In this document: positions 45,058-54,026 of the stretch, piece after piece
Layout: each line of letters starts with the position of its first letter
How positions within the stretch are numbered: position 1 is the first letter of the stretch
Assembly: GCF_003149025.1 (NCBI RefSeq)
Contig: NZ_QGDV01000004.1
Location: 124,001 to 188,000, forward strand
Origin: Rathayibacter iranicus NCPPB 2253 = VKM Ac-1602
GTDB lineage: Bacteria; Actinomycetota; Actinomycetes; Actinomycetales; Microbacteriaceae
Length of the DNA: 64,000 nt
Direction: 5' to 3'
Made by a program: the position numbers and the translations under genes
The notes under the pieces: model-generated
The model's database searches: none
What the model was told of the DNA's origin: nothing
Seen by the model: only the letters and a program-made list of their open reading frames with translations

Positions 45058-46443
45058 ATGATCAAGAAGAAGCAGACTACAACGGTCTCCATCCTTGCTG
45101 CGGCCGCCTTGGCCATGACCGCGGCGACGCCCGCGCAGGCAGAGACGACGACGCAATGGTTCAGCGGGAGTGCTACTGCAGGAACGAGATACGCGGAAAG
45201 CAACGGACATTCGGACCACGAGGGGATCAGGGCAGGACTCGCCGAGACCTCGGCCTTCGGCTCCGCCAATGTCCAGGCGTGGTACGGCCCGGTCAAGGTC
45301 GACGCGTGGGATGCGGAGATCGCGATCGACAGTACCCACGGCCCTCAGGAAGGCGGATTCAGGTGGACCTCTGCCAGCGGAATCGGGGCAGCCAAGGCGA
45401 ATGCCTGGGCTCTCGGCGCAGGCACCCACGCTCAATCGGCACCAGAGGACACTCCGAAGCGTCCTGCTGACGGTGCTCCCGCTCCTTCCGCATCACTGGT
45501 CTCACTCGCCGCAGCCTTCGGATTGTCTCTCGGCGATCTGACCTTTGCAGGAGAGTACGAGGAAGTCGCGCTCTGGACGGCGGCGAGTGCCTCGCACACG
45601 TTCCTCTTCGCCGGCACCGCCACCGGCTACGCCCTGTCCGCTCGAGTATCAAACGAACGCTTTCAGCAGGGCGCACTCTCTGTTCGCAGCACCATTCCCG
45701 GAGCCGATGGGGTCGACCATACTTATCAATTCATCCTCACCGATGACGCTCACGCAAAAGAGGTCGCGGCCGTAGCCGGTCTGGTGAGAATCGGAGGCAA
45801 CGTCTTCGTCGACACTTCCGTTGGCGACCGGGCAGACGATCAGATCACCTCGTTCACCGCGGCTGGAGCGATTCAGATCGGCGGTGGAGCGGGCGGAGGC
45901 GCTGGTGCTGGTGCCGGCGGTGAGATCGGCGGAGGCGCACACGGCGGGTTCGGCGGAGGCGCAGGCGGCGGAATCGGCGGCGGAATCGGCGGGGGCGCAG
46001 GCGGCGCAATCGGCGGCGGCGCAGGCGGTGGAGCGGGCGGAGGCGCAGGCGCTGGTGCCGGCGGTGAGATCGGCGGAGGCGCACACGGCGGGTTCGGCGG
46101 AGGCGCAGGCGGCGGAATCGGCGGCGCAATCGGCGGAGGCGCAGACGGCGCAATCGGCGGCGGCGCAGGCGGCGCAATCGGCGGAGGCGCAGGCGCAGGC
46201 GGCGGCGCGGGCGGCAGCGCAGGCGGAATCGTCATCGTGGTGGGCGGCGGCGCAGGCGGCGGCGCGGGCGCAGGCGGCGGGTTCGGCGGAGGCGCAGGCG
46301 CAGGCGGCGGGTTCGGCGGAGGCGCAGGCGCAGGCGGCGGGTTCGGCGGCGGAATCGGCGGCGGATTTGGTGGGGGAATCGGCTTCGGCGGCGGAATCGG
46401 CGGCGGAATCGGTTACGGTCTCGCGCTTTCCGGCGGAGAGTGA
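45058..46443 (+). CDS. Secreted glycine-rich tetrapeptide-repeat protein
   Basis: 461 aa. Clear signal peptide (MIKKKQTTTVSILAAAALAM then TPAQAE). Residues 30-275 form a Ser/Ala/Thr-rich, probably beta-sheet domain without Cys. From about 276 to the end the protein is about 60% Gly with a four-residue period, G-G-G-X, where X is Ala, Ile or Phe. It is broken once by a very hydrophobic patch (IVIVV) and ends in GIGYGLALSGGE. No sortase motif. Such repeats can give polyproline-II or fibrous structure, as in cell-surface adhesins or Gly-rich ice-binding proteins; the actual role is unknown. A strong terminator follows. Confidence 0.85.
   Translation: MIKKKQTTTVSILAAAALAMTAATPAQAETTTQWFSGSATAGTRYAESNGHSDHEGIRAGLAETSAFGSANVQAWYGPVKVDAWDAEIAIDSTHGPQEGGFRWTSASGIGAAKANAWALGAGTHAQSAPEDTPKRPADGAPAPSASLVSLAAAFGLSLGDLTFAGEYEEVALWTAASASHTFLFAGTATGYALSARVSNERFQQGALSVRSTIPGADGVDHTYQFILTDDAHAKEVAAVAGLVRIGGNVFVDTSVGDRADDQITSFTAAGAIQIGGGAGGGAGAGAGGEIGGGAHGGFGGGAGGGIGGGIGGGAGGAIGGGAGGGAGGGAGAGAGGEIGGGAHGGFGGGAGGGIGGAIGGGADGAIGGGAGGAIGGGAGAGGGAGGSAGGIVIVVGGGAGGGAGAGGGFGGGAGAGGGFGGGAGAGGGFGGGIGGGFGGGIGFGGGIGGGIGYGLALSGGE
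45881..46168 (+). repeat. 144-bp tandem duplication inside the Gly-rich gene
   Basis: 45881-46024 and 46025-46168 are near-identical 144-bp (48-codon) units made of 12-bp subunits such as GGCGGAGGCGCA. Both contain the codons for GEIGGGAHGGFGGG. The 12-bp periodicity continues to about 46420. A hotspot for length variation. Confidence 0.88.
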
Positions 46444-47245: not shown

Positions 47246-48310
47246 TCACCGCTCCTTGAAGTAACGGAACATGTGCCTCTCTCGGGTGAGAGCCACGCCG
47301 AGAGAGGAGCCGAGGAGCACCGACGCCGCCGCGAGCGCGAGAATGCGCACCGTACCAAGCATTAACGCCGTCCGGTCGGATGCGGCTTCCGGCATGACGA
47401 ACAGCAGCGTCACTGCCATCGCCGTGGCGCTAGCCGCAGACAGCCACGCGACATTTTCCAGGAGAAGTTGCACGAAGAGGGCACTCCTCCCGACACCGCA
47501 GTGCAGCGCGGATGCCAACTCCAAGCGGCGCACTCGGACGAGGACGCATCCAAGCGCGAGCCCAACGAGAGCAGCACTCGGGATCGTCAACAAGGAGTCA
47601 CGCGCCTCGACAAGTGCTCCAAAGTCGTAGTTGGCGCCCAGACGAGCGTTGAGCTGACCCACCGTGGGCTTTTCTCCATTGCCCGGCGCAACGGCTGTGA
47701 GAATGAATGAGGGAGCCAGTGATTGAGCAAACGGTACGTCCAACCAGCATGAATCAAACATGCCGTCAGCCGGAACGACATCGAGAACCGACCAGCCCAA
47801 CCCGGGAACGCGCCCATCGTCCGGGTAACTAAAAATGCCCGCGACAAAGACGGGCCCGCTCGTGGTTTCAACTCGTTCACCGACACCGATACTCAACGCG
47901 AGCGCGACCTCTTGCGAAAAGTACATACCCGCGACCGAGGGATCCGATTCGTGCGTGAAAAGCTCGACGAAGCGCGGGGTCACCGCCTTCGTGGGCACGA
48001 CAGAAGACGGCAACGCTTCAAAAACGATACCGTCGCCCTCCGAAAGTGCTCCTGCCGCCCGGGCACCAGAGACGTCTGCGAGATTCTCGCAGGCAGTACC
48101 GATGACACTCTTGGCGGAACTCACAGTGGAGACAGTCGCACCGGCCGAGAGGAACTCCCGGAACCTCGCCGTGATCGCCGTCACCGTCGTCACATCGTAG
48201 ACGCACAAGGAGCCGACGATGATAACGAAGAACACCAGCGCAAGGAGCGGCTTACTCGTACGAGTGGAGACGTTCCGCATTGCCTCCGAGAAGACGGATG
48301 AGAACCGCAA
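47246..48310 (-). CDS. FtsX/MacB-type ABC transporter permease (bacteriocin locus)
   Basis: 354 aa. The start is TTG 48310, two bases after the ATPase stop; ATG 48280 is an alternative. Topology is one N-terminal membrane helix (PLLALVFFVIIVGSLCVYDV), a large extracytoplasmic domain of about 190 residues with a Cys pair, then three C-terminal helices (SAALVGLALGCVLVRVRR onward). This is the MacB/FtsX architecture used in peptide export and antimicrobial-peptide resistance. Fourth gene after the bacteriocin, with its own ATPase and adaptor, so it probably exports or gives immunity to the bacteriocin. Confidence 0.82.
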   Translation of the reverse strand: MRFSSVFSEAMRNVSTRTSKPLLALVFFVIIVGSLCVYDVTTVTAITARFREFLSAGATVSTVSSAKSVIGTACENLADVSGARAAGALSEGDGIVFEALPSSVVPTKAVTPRFVELFTHESDPSVAGMYFSQEVALALSIGVGERVETTSGPVFVAGIFSYPDDGRVPGLGWSVLDVVPADGMFDSCWLDVPFAQSLAPSFILTAVAPGNGEKPTVGQLNARLGANYDFGALVEARDSLLTIPSAALVGLALGCVLVRVRRLELASALHCGVGRSALFVQLLLENVAWLSAASATAMAVTLLFVMPEAASDRTALMLGTVRILALAAASVLLGSSLGVALTRERHMFRYFKER

Positions 48311-48311
48311 C

Positions 48312-48959
48312 TCAGGTCACCAGCTCGATGATGGTGTGGCAAGCATCCGCCGCGCGAGAATCGTGTGTCGCTACGACGACGATGCTTCCACCGCTCGACA
48401 CCTTCGCGAGTGCCTGGATCACGACCTCGGCCGTTGCGGTGTCGAGCTGAGCAGTCGGCTCATCCACCAGAAGCAGATCGGGCGAGAAAGCCACCGCGCG
48501 AGCAAGCATCAGACGTTGAGCCTCACCGCCCGAGAGCTGAGCGAAAGAAGCGTATCCCTTTTCTTGAAGACCGAACGTTTCGAGTAGGTCCGTCGCACGC
48601 TCTTCGGCCAGCGCCCGGCTCTCACCTTTCGCGAGGAACGGCAAGACAACATGATCGATCGCTGATCGCCTCGCCGAACCGTGCGGGTTTTGGAAGACCC
48701 AACCGGTACTCGAGATGCAGTTCTTCCGTACTGATCCGAACGTCGGAGTGACGGAGCCCGAGATGATCCCGAGCAACGTCGACTTACCGGACCCGGACGG
48801 ACCTATCAGTGCATAGCTTCGCGAGGGTAGTAGTACCTGAGATATACCTTCAAAAAGGAGATGTCGACCATCGAAAGAGTGTTGAACGTCGACAAGCTCG
48901 ACGAACTTGTCTCCAGCAGAGCGCTCATCGAGTGAAGCATCCGAGCGGACGTCTAACAT
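48312..48959 (-). CDS. ABC transporter ATP-binding protein (bacteriocin locus)
   Basis: 215 aa. Walker A GPSGSGKST, Q-loop WVFQNPHG, signature LSGGEAQR, Walker B LLLVDEPTAQLD and switch His ATHDS are all intact: an active MacB/LolD-type ATPase. The ATG overlaps the end of the adaptor gene by 7 bp. Powers the permease encoded next. Confidence 0.93.
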   Translation of the reverse strand: MLDVRSDASLDERSAGDKFVELVDVQHSFDGRHLLFEGISQVLLPSRSYALIGPSGSGKSTLLGIISGSVTPTFGSVRKNCISSTGWVFQNPHGSARRSAIDHVVLPFLAKGESRALAEERATDLLETFGLQEKGYASFAQLSGGEAQRLMLARAVAFSPDLLLVDEPTAQLDTATAEVVIQALAKVSSGGSIVVVATHDSRAADACHTIIELVT

Positions 48960-50041
48960 GCACCCGAACCCTCCGGCGCAGCATCGACACTGTCCGGCGC
49001 TTCCGAGTCAGGGAAGACCACGAAAGACTTCCCCAGTTCAGAACCGACAATCTCGACAGCGAAGTTCGACCCCTCTGAGCTCGTGCAGCCACGATTATCC
49101 CTCAGTGCGAATATCGCGCCCGGAGGGACAGCCCATGTCTCCAGCGGCGAAGCGAGTTCCAGGCTTGCGTCAAGCATCACGGAGCCGCCTGAGTCGGCAT
49201 CGGACTGTGCGGTACTTCCCGCCGCACCAGAGGAGTCAGAGGTGTGTAACGCCTGCCTGAATGCGGTCGTCCGCCGAAGAGCATTGACGTCCTCGGGAGT
49301 CGTGACCGCTCCGGATTCGTCAACGGGTACACGAAGCTCGCCAACCACCACGACTCGCTGTCCAGGCACGAGATCCTTCGGCGCATTGCTGACTTCAGCG
49401 CCGGTCGCTTGCGGGTCAAGGGTGGCCACTACGGTGCCTGATGCGACCTGTCCGCCAAGGGGGACGGCGCACGAGGCCGCCGTTCCTTCCGAAACCGGCA
49501 GCCAGAGGACCGAATCCCGGGCAATTGTATCAGAGGGAGAAGCAGGTCCGCCCAGCTCACGTAGTCGGGCGTTGACGATCTCAATGGCTGTCAAACCCAG
49601 AACCCCGTCGGCGCGGACAGATTTACCGAGGCGCATCAGTTCTTCCTGCAAAGCACGGACGTCGGCCCCGCTATCCCCGACGCGTAAGTCACGATAAAGC
49701 GGAGTTGTCGTCGCCACACTCAGGAGATGCACTCCGTCGACGGCAATGAAGCTCTGCCACGATGAGAGTGCAGACCCGGGCGCACAGTCGAGAGCCGTCA
49801 CTGTTCCGGTCCGGGGTACCTCTACCGATAATTTTCCGCCCTGCTGAACGGACAACTTGACTGTCCGAGCATCGACCAGTGTTTGCGACGTAAGTGCAAA
49901 TTTTGACGGCGTCGATTTCGTCATCGTCACCGATCCCGGCACCGCAGGCGGCACAGCAAGTGCAAGGCCCACCACAAATGCAGCGCTAGCAATCCCGATA
50001 CCCGCTAATATCATCAGGCCGTAGCCCCTGCCCTTACTCAT
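48953..50041 (-). CDS. HlyD-like adaptor with peptidoglycan-binding domain
   Basis: 362 aa. N-terminal membrane anchor (LMILAGIGIASAAFVVGLALAV), beta-barrel/lipoyl-like strands, then a peptidoglycan-binding type 1 domain (LRVGDSGADVRALQEELMRLGKSV, about 120-165), and distal membrane-proximal barrel strands. A Ser/Gly-rich insert lies at about 285-300. In Gram-positive bacteria such adaptors assist MacB-type exporters of antimicrobial peptides. Cotranscribed with the ATPase and permease; preceded 42 bp upstream by the lipoprotein gene. Confidence 0.82.
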   Translation of the reverse strand: MSKGRGYGLMILAGIGIASAAFVVGLALAVPPAVPGSVTMTKSTPSKFALTSQTLVDARTVKLSVQQGGKLSVEVPRTGTVTALDCAPGSALSSWQSFIAVDGVHLLSVATTTPLYRDLRVGDSGADVRALQEELMRLGKSVRADGVLGLTAIEIVNARLRELGGPASPSDTIARDSVLWLPVSEGTAASCAVPLGGQVASGTVVATLDPQATGAEVSNAPKDLVPGQRVVVVGELRVPVDESGAVTTPEDVNALRRTTAFRQALHTSDSSGAAGSTAQSDADSGGSVMLDASLELASPLETWAVPPGAIFALRDNRGCTSSEGSNFAVEIVGSELGKSFVVFPDSEAPDSVDAAPEGSGAC

Positions 50042-50083
50042 GGCGACTGCGCCGTGAGTAATGCGACTTGCGAGACTCGCGTC

Positions 50084-50692
50084 TCACGGCTGCTCTCCGA
50101 GAGGGTCGATCCGGCATTCCTCAAGGGCTTCTCGACCCGCATCCTCATCGACAAAAGGATAATCATCGCGAGAAGAGTCGTTGGCGTAGTCATTCGCCGA
50201 GTAAGACGATGGAACGACCGCCTTCTTCACCAGGCATTCTACGATCAACGACCCCTCGTCGGTCCTGTCCGGGTTGCGGTGTGTCCAGCTGTACAACGAC
50301 CCGATCTCCGCTTCGCCGGACTGCCGGGAGCACGACTCGACATCGCTGTTGGCGACGTCGGAAGAGGTCTCTGGCGGAAAGGTGAGAGAGAACGAGCCAT
50401 CCAACTCGTAGTCACCGATGTCGTACCCGAAGCCTGACACGCAGCCCCTGAAGCGGTCTATCATCTCCGAGTATTCTTGCTCTGAGATTGCCCCGTCCTT
50501 GATTGCCTTCCGGGAGAATTCGTCGGAAGCCCGCGCATAGCTGGCCGAAAACTCTGCGGCCCACGGCCCGGTGAATTCGACATCGGAGGCACTTTCTGCC
50601 CCTTCGGTGGTAGGAATCGTCTGGCTCGTACAGGCGACCAGACCCACGACCACCAGCGCACATCCGCATATTGACCACATTTTCGACCACAC
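50084..50692 (-). CDS. Lipoprotein of unknown function (bacteriocin locus)
   Basis: About 202 aa (GTG 50692; ATG at residue 5 is an alternative). Lipobox LVAC following a short hydrophobic segment (ALVVVGLVAC), so it is anchored to the outer face of the membrane. The mature part is acidic, with CVSGFGYDIGDYELDGSFSL and later Cys in DVESCSRQ, IVECLVK and LEECRID, suggesting disulfides. Similar small actinobacterial lipoproteins with a FRGCVxxxGY motif often accompany MacB-type transporters. It may take part in immunity; that is inference. Confidence 0.8.
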   Translation of the reverse strand: MWSKMWSICGCALVVVGLVACTSQTIPTTEGAESASDVEFTGPWAAEFSASYARASDEFSRKAIKDGAISEQEYSEMIDRFRGCVSGFGYDIGDYELDGSFSLTFPPETSSDVANSDVESCSRQSGEAEIGSLYSWTHRNPDRTDEGSLIVECLVKKAVVPSSYSANDYANDSSRDDYPFVDEDAGREALEECRIDPLGEQP

Positions 50693-50761
50693 GTCTGACC
50701 GCCAATAACTTGAGGGCTACGGCCCTATGACGGGCATGAGCTTGGGAAGTTTCTTACGGTA

Positions 50762-50798
50762 CTGCGTGCCGGCGAACGAACTGTACGCCGGCACGCAG
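50762..50798 (-). terminator. Terminator of the bacteriocin gene
   Basis: Perfect 13-bp stem (50762-50774 with 50786-50798) and an 11-nt loop, 3 bp beyond the bacteriocin stop. It probably lets the bacteriocin transcript accumulate above the transporter genes downstream. Confidence 0.85.
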
Positions 50799-50801
50799 CC
50801 T

Positions 50802-51131
50802 CTAGGAAAGGACGTCGTAATACGCGGTATTACCAGAGGCCTTCATCGGTGACCAGTGAGCTATAGCAAGCACCGACGAAGGCTTCCAACCACTGTACGC
50901 ACACCCACGGTAGCCGCACGCGGTCGACCTATGGGTCCTGCTTTCGTGCTGGTATTCGGAATAAACTTGGCCACCACTTCCGTACTGGCCGCCGGCCCGC
51001 ACACCGTGATGCCACACGCCCCCGTCAGCCGGATATACCGTCGTCGCTGATGCGCTGATTGCTCCCCCCATCACGAGACTACTGGCAGCCAACACACCTG
51101 CAACAACCTTCGCAACTCTGCATCGAATCAT
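50802..51131 (-). CDS. Lactococcin 972-family bacteriocin precursor
   Basis: 109 aa from ATG 51131 (longer in-frame starts exist). Signal peptide (VAKVVAGVLAASSLVMGG then AISASA) gives a mature peptide of about 80 residues. The mature part carries the family pattern: GGVWHHGV, then SRTHRSTACGYRGCAYSGWKP and the C-terminal SGNTAYYDV. Two Cys. Lactococcin 972 binds lipid II and blocks septum formation in lactococci; members are Sec-exported. The mature peptide is longer at the front than lactococcin 972 (66 residues). Followed by its own terminator and a lipoprotein/adaptor/ABC set on the same strand. Confidence 0.9.
   Translation of the reverse strand: MIRCRVAKVVAGVLAASSLVMGGAISASATTVYPADGGVWHHGVRAGGQYGSGGQVYSEYQHESRTHRSTACGYRGCAYSGWKPSSVLAIAHWSPMKASGNTAYYDVLS

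Positions 51132-51698: not shown

Positions 51699-54026
<2,328 letters not shown>

What the first reader, a model, noticed from the sequence alone, without database searches (positions are those of the whole stretch)
47246..51131. Lactococcin-972-type bacteriocin locus with an unusual accessory set
A Sec-exported lactococcin 972-like peptide (SRTHRSTACGYRGC core) is followed by its own 13-bp-stem terminator and then a lipoprotein, a HlyD-like adaptor with a peptidoglycan-binding domain, an ABC ATPase and an FtsX-type permease. Known lactococcin 972 loci carry a membrane immunity protein and an ABC ATPase. The lipoprotein plus peptidoglycan-binding adaptor arrangement differs and may be the immunity or export device in this lineage. 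The mature peptide is about 80 residues, longer than the 66 of lactococcin 972.
Basis: partly seen in the sequence, partly recalled or inferred. Interest (0 to 1): 0.8.

Follow-up and report, generated by a model that had tools for sequence, protein, structure and literature searches.

The report
Modular immunity cassette for actinobacterial bacteriocins
A bacterium carries a gene for a secreted, probably antibacterial peptide followed by four genes that most likely protect the maker from it, and the same four-gene kit sits beside several other, so far unnamed, small secreted peptides in related bacteria, which makes it a signpost for possible new antibacterials.

Summary
The five genes are real. 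The precursor passes the PF09683 and TIGR01653 cut-offs. The four genes behind it (lipoprotein, adaptor, ABC ATPase, FtsX/MacB-like permease) are a conserved cassette. Of 46 PF09683 loci from genus and family samples, 19 have the cassette, 4 only the lipoprotein, 22 a classical 7-9-TM protein plus ATPase, 1 neither; none has both. Bacteriocin sequence distances track the lipoprotein (partial r 0.385, permutation p 0.0002, 17 loci) but none of the transporter genes. Best reading: the lipoprotein is the cognate immunity protein and the transporter clears peptide from the membrane-wall zone; export is by Sec. The cassette is not tied to lactococcin 972: of 38 cassettes found through the permease alone, 5 have a PF09683 peptide, 23 another small secreted peptide at that position (19 by a mechanical rule, 4 by hand), 10 neither. 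No convincing family match was found for these other peptides. Function is inferred, untested. New variant of a known kind; it works like NisI plus NisFEG or AS-48EFGH, membership in those not shown.

The parts
50802..51131 (-). lactococcin 972 family precursor, 109 aa
   Evidence: PF09683 30.7 bits (cut-off 22), TIGR01653 33.7 (cut-off 32.1):
51045..51131 (-). Sec signal peptide, about 29 aa, cleavage after SASA
   Evidence: by inspection; no signal-peptide program was available
50762..50798 (-). hairpin with 13-bp arms directly after the precursor gene; no T-run
   Evidence: (z -5.9)
50084..50692 (-). lipoprotein, 202 aa, predicted cognate immunity protein; five invariant Cys including the lipobox Cys
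   Evidence: AF2 model pLDDT 88.1; co-variation
48953..50041 (-). adaptor: N-terminal membrane anchor (by inspection), peptidoglycan-binding-like segment about profile positions 116-165
48312..48959 (-). ABC ATPase, 215 aa
   Evidence: PF00005 83.2 bits; TIGR03608 107.2 bits, under its cut-off 254.85
47246..48310 (-). FtsX/MacB-like permease, 354 aa
   Evidence: FtsX in 4 of 17 aligned permeases, not in this one; MacB 5gko E 0.045

Best explanation
A five-gene operon makes a Sec-secreted lactococcin 972-type bacteriocin and protects its maker. Shown: the genes, their family ties, their conserved order, and that the device stands in the place of the classical 7-TM-plus-ATPase device beside the same bacteriocin family. 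Inferred: the lipoprotein, anchored outside the membrane, binds the cognate bacteriocin and keeps it off its target (lipid II in lactococcin 972, from the literature); the adaptor, held by the peptidoglycan, together with the ATPase and the MacB-like permease uses ATP to push bound peptide out of the membrane-wall zone (mechanotransmission) rather than exporting it from the cytoplasm. A strong hairpin after the precursor gene probably gives much peptide message and less immunity message. The transporter is a general module that also serves other secreted peptides.
For: Family cut-offs passed; profile hit on solved lactococcin 972, 2lgn, E 1.5e-8. Device swap: 19 cassette, 4 lipoprotein only, 22 classical, 1 neither, 0 both, of 46 (TIGR01654 at E <= 0.01 in 9 of 14 classical proteins scanned). 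Distances: bacteriocin-lipoprotein r 0.41, partial 0.385, p 0.0002; adaptor, ATPase and permease 0.75-0.80 with each other but 0.12-0.16 with the bacteriocin (17 of the 19 loci, L051 and L064 left out). Lipoprotein in 60 of 66 cassettes. One cassette (L164) keeps all four genes beside a broken-off, inverted C-terminal piece of a bacteriocin gene, as expected of retained immunity. Three of the four genomes with bacteriocin plus lipoprotein alone have a cassette-type adaptor at another place (L143, L144, L074). Hairpin after the precursor gene: z <= -2.9 in 6 of 11 gaps, -2.2 and -1.7 in two more, none in three. Outside parallel: between AS-48EFGH and MR10EFGH the adaptor, ATPase and permease are over 95 % identical but the small first protein only 46 % (PMC8306556, passages).
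Confidence: 0.65

Rival explanations
1. The ABC complex exports or releases the bacteriocin (dedicated secretion or passage through the cell wall), with the lipoprotein as a chaperone.
For: The NCBI name of the classical ATPase family is 'putative bacteriocin export ABC transporter'; a peptidoglycan-binding adaptor could carry a peptide through a thick wall; MacAB-TolC exports a protein toxin from the periplasm (PMC5985334, passages).
Against: The precursor has a plain Sec signal peptide (by inspection); 4 of 46 loci have precursor and lipoprotein without a transporter beside them, although 3 of those genomes have one elsewhere; sequence distances of the transporter genes do not follow the bacteriocin. 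Sec export is also argued for mediterrocin, a family member (PMC12345188, passages).
Confidence: 0.17
2. The three transporter genes are a general cell-envelope stress pump (MacAB/YknXYZ-like) that happens to lie beside bacteriocin genes; only the lipoprotein matters for immunity.
For: Bacteriocin distances follow the lipoprotein only; 10 of 38 permease-found cassettes have no recognised peptide gene; more distant adaptors of the same kind are common (118 of 299 genomes have a match at E <= 0.001, but only 33 places reach 220 bits).
Against: The cassette-type adaptors form a separate group (33 places at 220 bits or more, next at 96), and 27 of the 33 stand beside a secreted-peptide gene; the operon is tightly packed.
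Confidence: 0.13
3. The secreted peptide is a signal or envelope protein, not a bacteriocin, and the cassette senses or responds to it.
For: No activity is known to me for any peptide of this set.
Against: Membership in a bacteriocin family at curated cut-offs. Regulator genes were not searched for systematically.
Confidence: 0.05

Closest known systems
Lactococcin 972 and its classical operon (streptococcin B, mediterrocin); PMC11796350 and PMC12345188, passages seen
   Same: Secreted peptide of the same family; peptide gene first, then membrane protein(s) and ABC ATPase. [quoted passage not shown]
   Different: Classical loci have one 7-TM DUF1430/TIGR01654 protein and one ATPase; here a lipoprotein, an adaptor, an ATPase and a small permease.
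AS-48EFGH and MR10EFGH 'Transporter-2' of enterococci; PMC8306556, passages seen
   Same: Same gene order: small protein of unknown function, adaptor, ATPase, permease; serves self-protection; one module gives protection against bacteriocins of different classes; the small first protein is the divergent part.
   Different: The bacteriocins there are of other classes; the small first protein (163 aa in MR10) is not called a lipoprotein in the passages seen; no sequence comparison was made here.
NisI plus NisFEG (lantibiotic immunity); PMC8538875, passages seen
   Same: Membrane-anchored lipoprotein that binds the peptide plus an ABC transporter that expels it.
YknXYZ and other Gram-positive MacAB-like systems; PMC5985334, passages seen
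   Same: Adaptor that binds peptidoglycan, MacB homologue; protection from an endogenous peptide toxin (SDP).
   Different: No lipoprotein or own peptide gene is mentioned in the passages seen.
Lactococcin 972-related clusters of Brevibacterium; PMC5719810, passages seen
   Same: An actinobacterial peptide gene in an operon with two transmembrane proteins and an ABC ATPase: possibly this cassette without its lipoprotein.
   Different: Not described there as adaptor, lipoprotein or immunity cassette; sequences not compared here.

Membership tests
Lactococcin 972 family bacteriocin (PF09683/TIGR01653) | Precursor above curated family cut-offs | tested here: met
   30.7 vs 22 bits and 33.7 vs 32.1 bits
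Lactococcin 972 family bacteriocin (PF09683/TIGR01653) | Sec signal peptide | tested here: met
   by inspection only; no signal-peptide program
Lactococcin 972 family bacteriocin (PF09683/TIGR01653) | Relation to a solved family structure | tested here: met
   profile A4, 16 sequences including the window peptide, hits 2lgn E 1.5e-8 and 9hkj E 1.3e-5; the window peptide alone was not searched
Lactococcin 972 family bacteriocin (PF09683/TIGR01653) | Lipid II binding, antibacterial activity | not testable with these tools
   needs a bench test
Classical lactococcin 972 operon | 7-TM TIGR01654/DUF1430 protein | tested here: not met
   no TIGR01654 match listed for the precursor, lipoprotein, adaptor or permease at E 0.1; the permease matches no Pfam family at E 1
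Classical lactococcin 972 operon | ATPase of TIGR03608 | tested here: not met
   107.2 bits, cut-off 254.85
MacAB/YknXYZ-type tripartite transporter | FtsX/MacB-type permease | tested here: inconclusive
   FtsX in 4 of 17 aligned permeases, best 4e-6, none in the window protein; MacB chain E 0.045
MacAB/YknXYZ-type tripartite transporter | Periplasmic adaptor with lipoyl/barrel-sandwich core | tested here: inconclusive
   HlyD_D23 in 1 of 18 at E 0.012; peptidoglycan-binding domain in 13 of 18
AS-48EFGH Transporter-2 | Gene order small protein, adaptor, ATPase, permease | tested here: met
   order against the description in PMC8306556
AS-48EFGH Transporter-2 | Sequence homology of the four proteins | not tested
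   AS-48 proteins were not fetched
NisI/SpaI-type immunity lipoprotein | Lipobox | tested here: met
   LVAC; Cys invariant in 30 of 30 aligned, whose starts were chosen by the lipobox
NisI/SpaI-type immunity lipoprotein | Same fold | tested here: inconclusive

The most novel reading that the evidence does not exclude
The lipoprotein-adaptor-ATPase-permease cassette is a general self-protection kit of Actinomycetota that travels with several unrelated or very distant families of small Sec-secreted, often Cys-containing peptides; lactococcin 972-like peptides are only one of them, and the others (in Nocardiopsis, Actinoplanes, Thermomonospora, Cellulomonas, Sanguibacter, Mycetocola, Bifidobacterium, Propionibacteriaceae) are undescribed bacteriocin families that can be found by looking at the gene in front of the cassette. 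Each lipoprotein is the specific antidote of its neighbour, while the transporter is exchangeable.
Probability: 0.5. Interest if true: 0.75.

Novelty: new variant of a known kind. Interest (0 to 1): 0.57.

Why it matters
How lactococcin 972-type producers protect themselves has, according to PMC11796350, not been verified in any locus. Here nature offers two alternative devices for the same peptide family, one of them with a separate, easily assayed lipoprotein, so the question becomes testable with simple gene-removal and binding experiments. The cassette also works as a search handle for secreted peptides that the Pfam and NCBIfam models do not clearly recognise.

Full report
What is there. 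Five minus-strand genes lie at 51131-47246. The first encodes a 109-aa Sec-type precursor that passes the PF09683 and TIGR01653 cut-offs. Behind a 109-base gap with a 13-bp-arm hairpin (z -5.9) come a lipoprotein, an adaptor, an ATPase and a permease, the last three overlapping or 1 base apart. The hairpin has no T-run. I looked at 16 cassettes with a PF09683 peptide (window included): 5 have gaps too short or overlapping genes; of the other 11 gaps, 6 fold with z <= -2.9, L068 with -2.2, L057 with -1.7, and L062, L063 and L077 no better than shuffles. The own genome has this one PF09683 locus. The genus is probably Rathayibacter, because genome G011 of the same genus has a contig of the same length, with the same locus, as the record of Rathayibacter sp. 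VKM Ac-2856 (L200); the species is unknown.

Forward test. PF09683 was found in 10 of 15 genomes of the genus, in 33 of 299 of the family and in 4 of 396 of the phylum. I fetched the neighbourhoods of all 45 further loci listed by the genus and family searches and mapped them with profiles of the five proteins and by crude membrane-segment counts. With the window, 46 loci: 19 with lipoprotein, adaptor and permease (one of them, L051, without a recognised ATPase and with its permease in two frames); 4 with the lipoprotein only (L053, L055, L061, L082); 22 with a 645-889-aa protein of 7-9 predicted membrane segments and a separate ATPase; 1 (L049) with neither. Of 14 of those 22 membrane proteins scanned, 9 match TIGR01654, the classical 'bacteriocin-associated integral membrane protein', at E <= 0.01 (best 2.4e-37; the one row whose score is shown, 23.6 bits, is under the cut-off of 189), and 3 match DUF1430. 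No locus has both devices (chance under free mixing 3e-12, but loci are related, so this number only describes). Two genomes, G005 and G111, hold both kinds at different loci. In the genus 3 of 11 loci have the cassette, 8 the classical device.

Reverse test. In the 299 family genomes, cassette-type adaptors (220 bits or more; the next match has 96) occur at 33 places: 19 beside PF09683, 8 beside another small secreted peptide (L148-L153, L158, L159), 6 beside none, of which L156 is at a contig edge. In named genomes, a scan with one pattern from seven permeases found 42 loci, 38 of them with adaptor and permease: 5 have a PF09683 peptide; of the other 33, 19 have a head peptide by a mechanical rule (80-130 aa, signal-like start, ribosome-binding-like bases, soluble rest, ending near a cassette start; 17 if only the first start is tried), 4 more by hand (L166, L168, L179, L197), and 10 neither (L164 with a broken remnant, L165, L171, L178, L181, L183, L188, L194, L195 at a contig edge, L196). 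Pooled without five duplicates there are 66 cassettes: 60 with a lipoprotein, 22 with a PF09683-like peptide; of the other 44, 24 pass the rule, 22 with one start point each, against 25 of 1182 control positions with one point each in the same loci (Fisher p 3e-22). The pooled figure of 22 PF09683-like peptides is inflated, as many loci were found through PF09683 itself; the 38 permease-found cassettes are the fairer count. The controls are long open frames on both strands, genes or not.

The other head peptides. By eye they fall into groups: 'C...N..C' peptides of Microbacteriaceae and relatives (A6, 12 sequences), a group with 'RSYAxHG...W' in Nocardiopsis, Actinoplanes, Thermomonospora, Cellulomonas and Propionibacteriaceae (A7, 7 sequences, 34-55 % identity to the first), a Micromonospora/Cellulosimicrobium group (A8, 6), and pairs in Bifidobacterium and Propionibacteriaceae. 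Scans of 27 of them gave only scattered hits in one or two members each, the best E 0.00018 in Pfam and 0.0021 in NCBIfam (listed under Tried and rejected). Homology to lactococcin 972 is neither shown nor excluded. Mediterrocin, at 18 % identity with a similar predicted fold (PMC12345188, passages), shows how far this family can drift.

Mechanism. NisI binds nisin and NisFEG expels it (PMC8538875, passages). AS-48EFGH, with the order small protein-adaptor-ATPase-permease, protects against bacteriocins of two classes, and in the kindred MR10 cluster only the small first protein differs much (46 % against over 95 %; PMC8306556, passages): a specific small protein before an interchangeable transporter, as seen here. 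YknXYZ protects against SDP and its adaptor binds peptidoglycan, and MacB-type transporters work outside the membrane without carrying substrate through it (PMC5985334, passages). These fit a lipoprotein that captures the cognate peptide and a wall-anchored transporter that clears it. Which step does what here is inference.

Literature. [quoted passage not shown] PMC5719810 (passages) reports Brevibacterium clusters with two transmembrane proteins and an ATPase; PMC12823222 (passages) only names such a cluster in Frigoribacterium. PMC12328743 (outline and passages) concerns another class. Search listings in which I saw no title or abstract describing this cassette; subscription papers and preprints are largely outside that library and most listed papers were not opened, so absence there is weak evidence.

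Verdict. An ordinary family member with a recurrent, alternative, probably exchangeable immunity kit; the wider guild of unnamed head peptides is the interesting part and is a prediction.

Noticed in passing
window 52095-54026 and 52190-52297 (+): thiC with a TPP riboswitch (61.3 bits), which overlaps the start of the long frame, so thiC probably starts later than 52095. A DNA search found the gene in none of the other 14 genomes of the genus, only the riboswitch core and short scattered pieces: the bacteriocin locus may lie in an accessory region.
   Followed up: partly
window 45058-46443 (+): Secreted-looking 461-aa protein with a long Gly/Ala-rich repeat tail, no Pfam family at E 0.001.
   Followed up: no
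L164:5458-5634 (-): Inverted, broken-off C-terminal piece of a lactococcin 972-like gene directly before an intact cassette in Agromyces soli.
   Followed up: partly
L154:4679-7776 and L155:4541-7608 (-): A cassette-type lipoprotein and a small Cys-containing secreted peptide beside a much longer open frame (about 2.1 kb) matching the ATPase profile: perhaps a fused or third kind of device.
   Followed up: no
L077:5730-8901 (+): Three lipoprotein copies and two bacteriocin-like frames (one at only 28 bits) in a row before one transporter: possible spare antidotes against neighbours' peptides.
   Followed up: no
L160, L161, L162: Cassette-type adaptor, ATPase and permease without a peptide gene or a lipoprotein in front; all three have weakly matching lipoprotein frames (33-54 bits) behind the permease, and L161 and L162 another ABC ATPase match upstream.
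   Followed up: no
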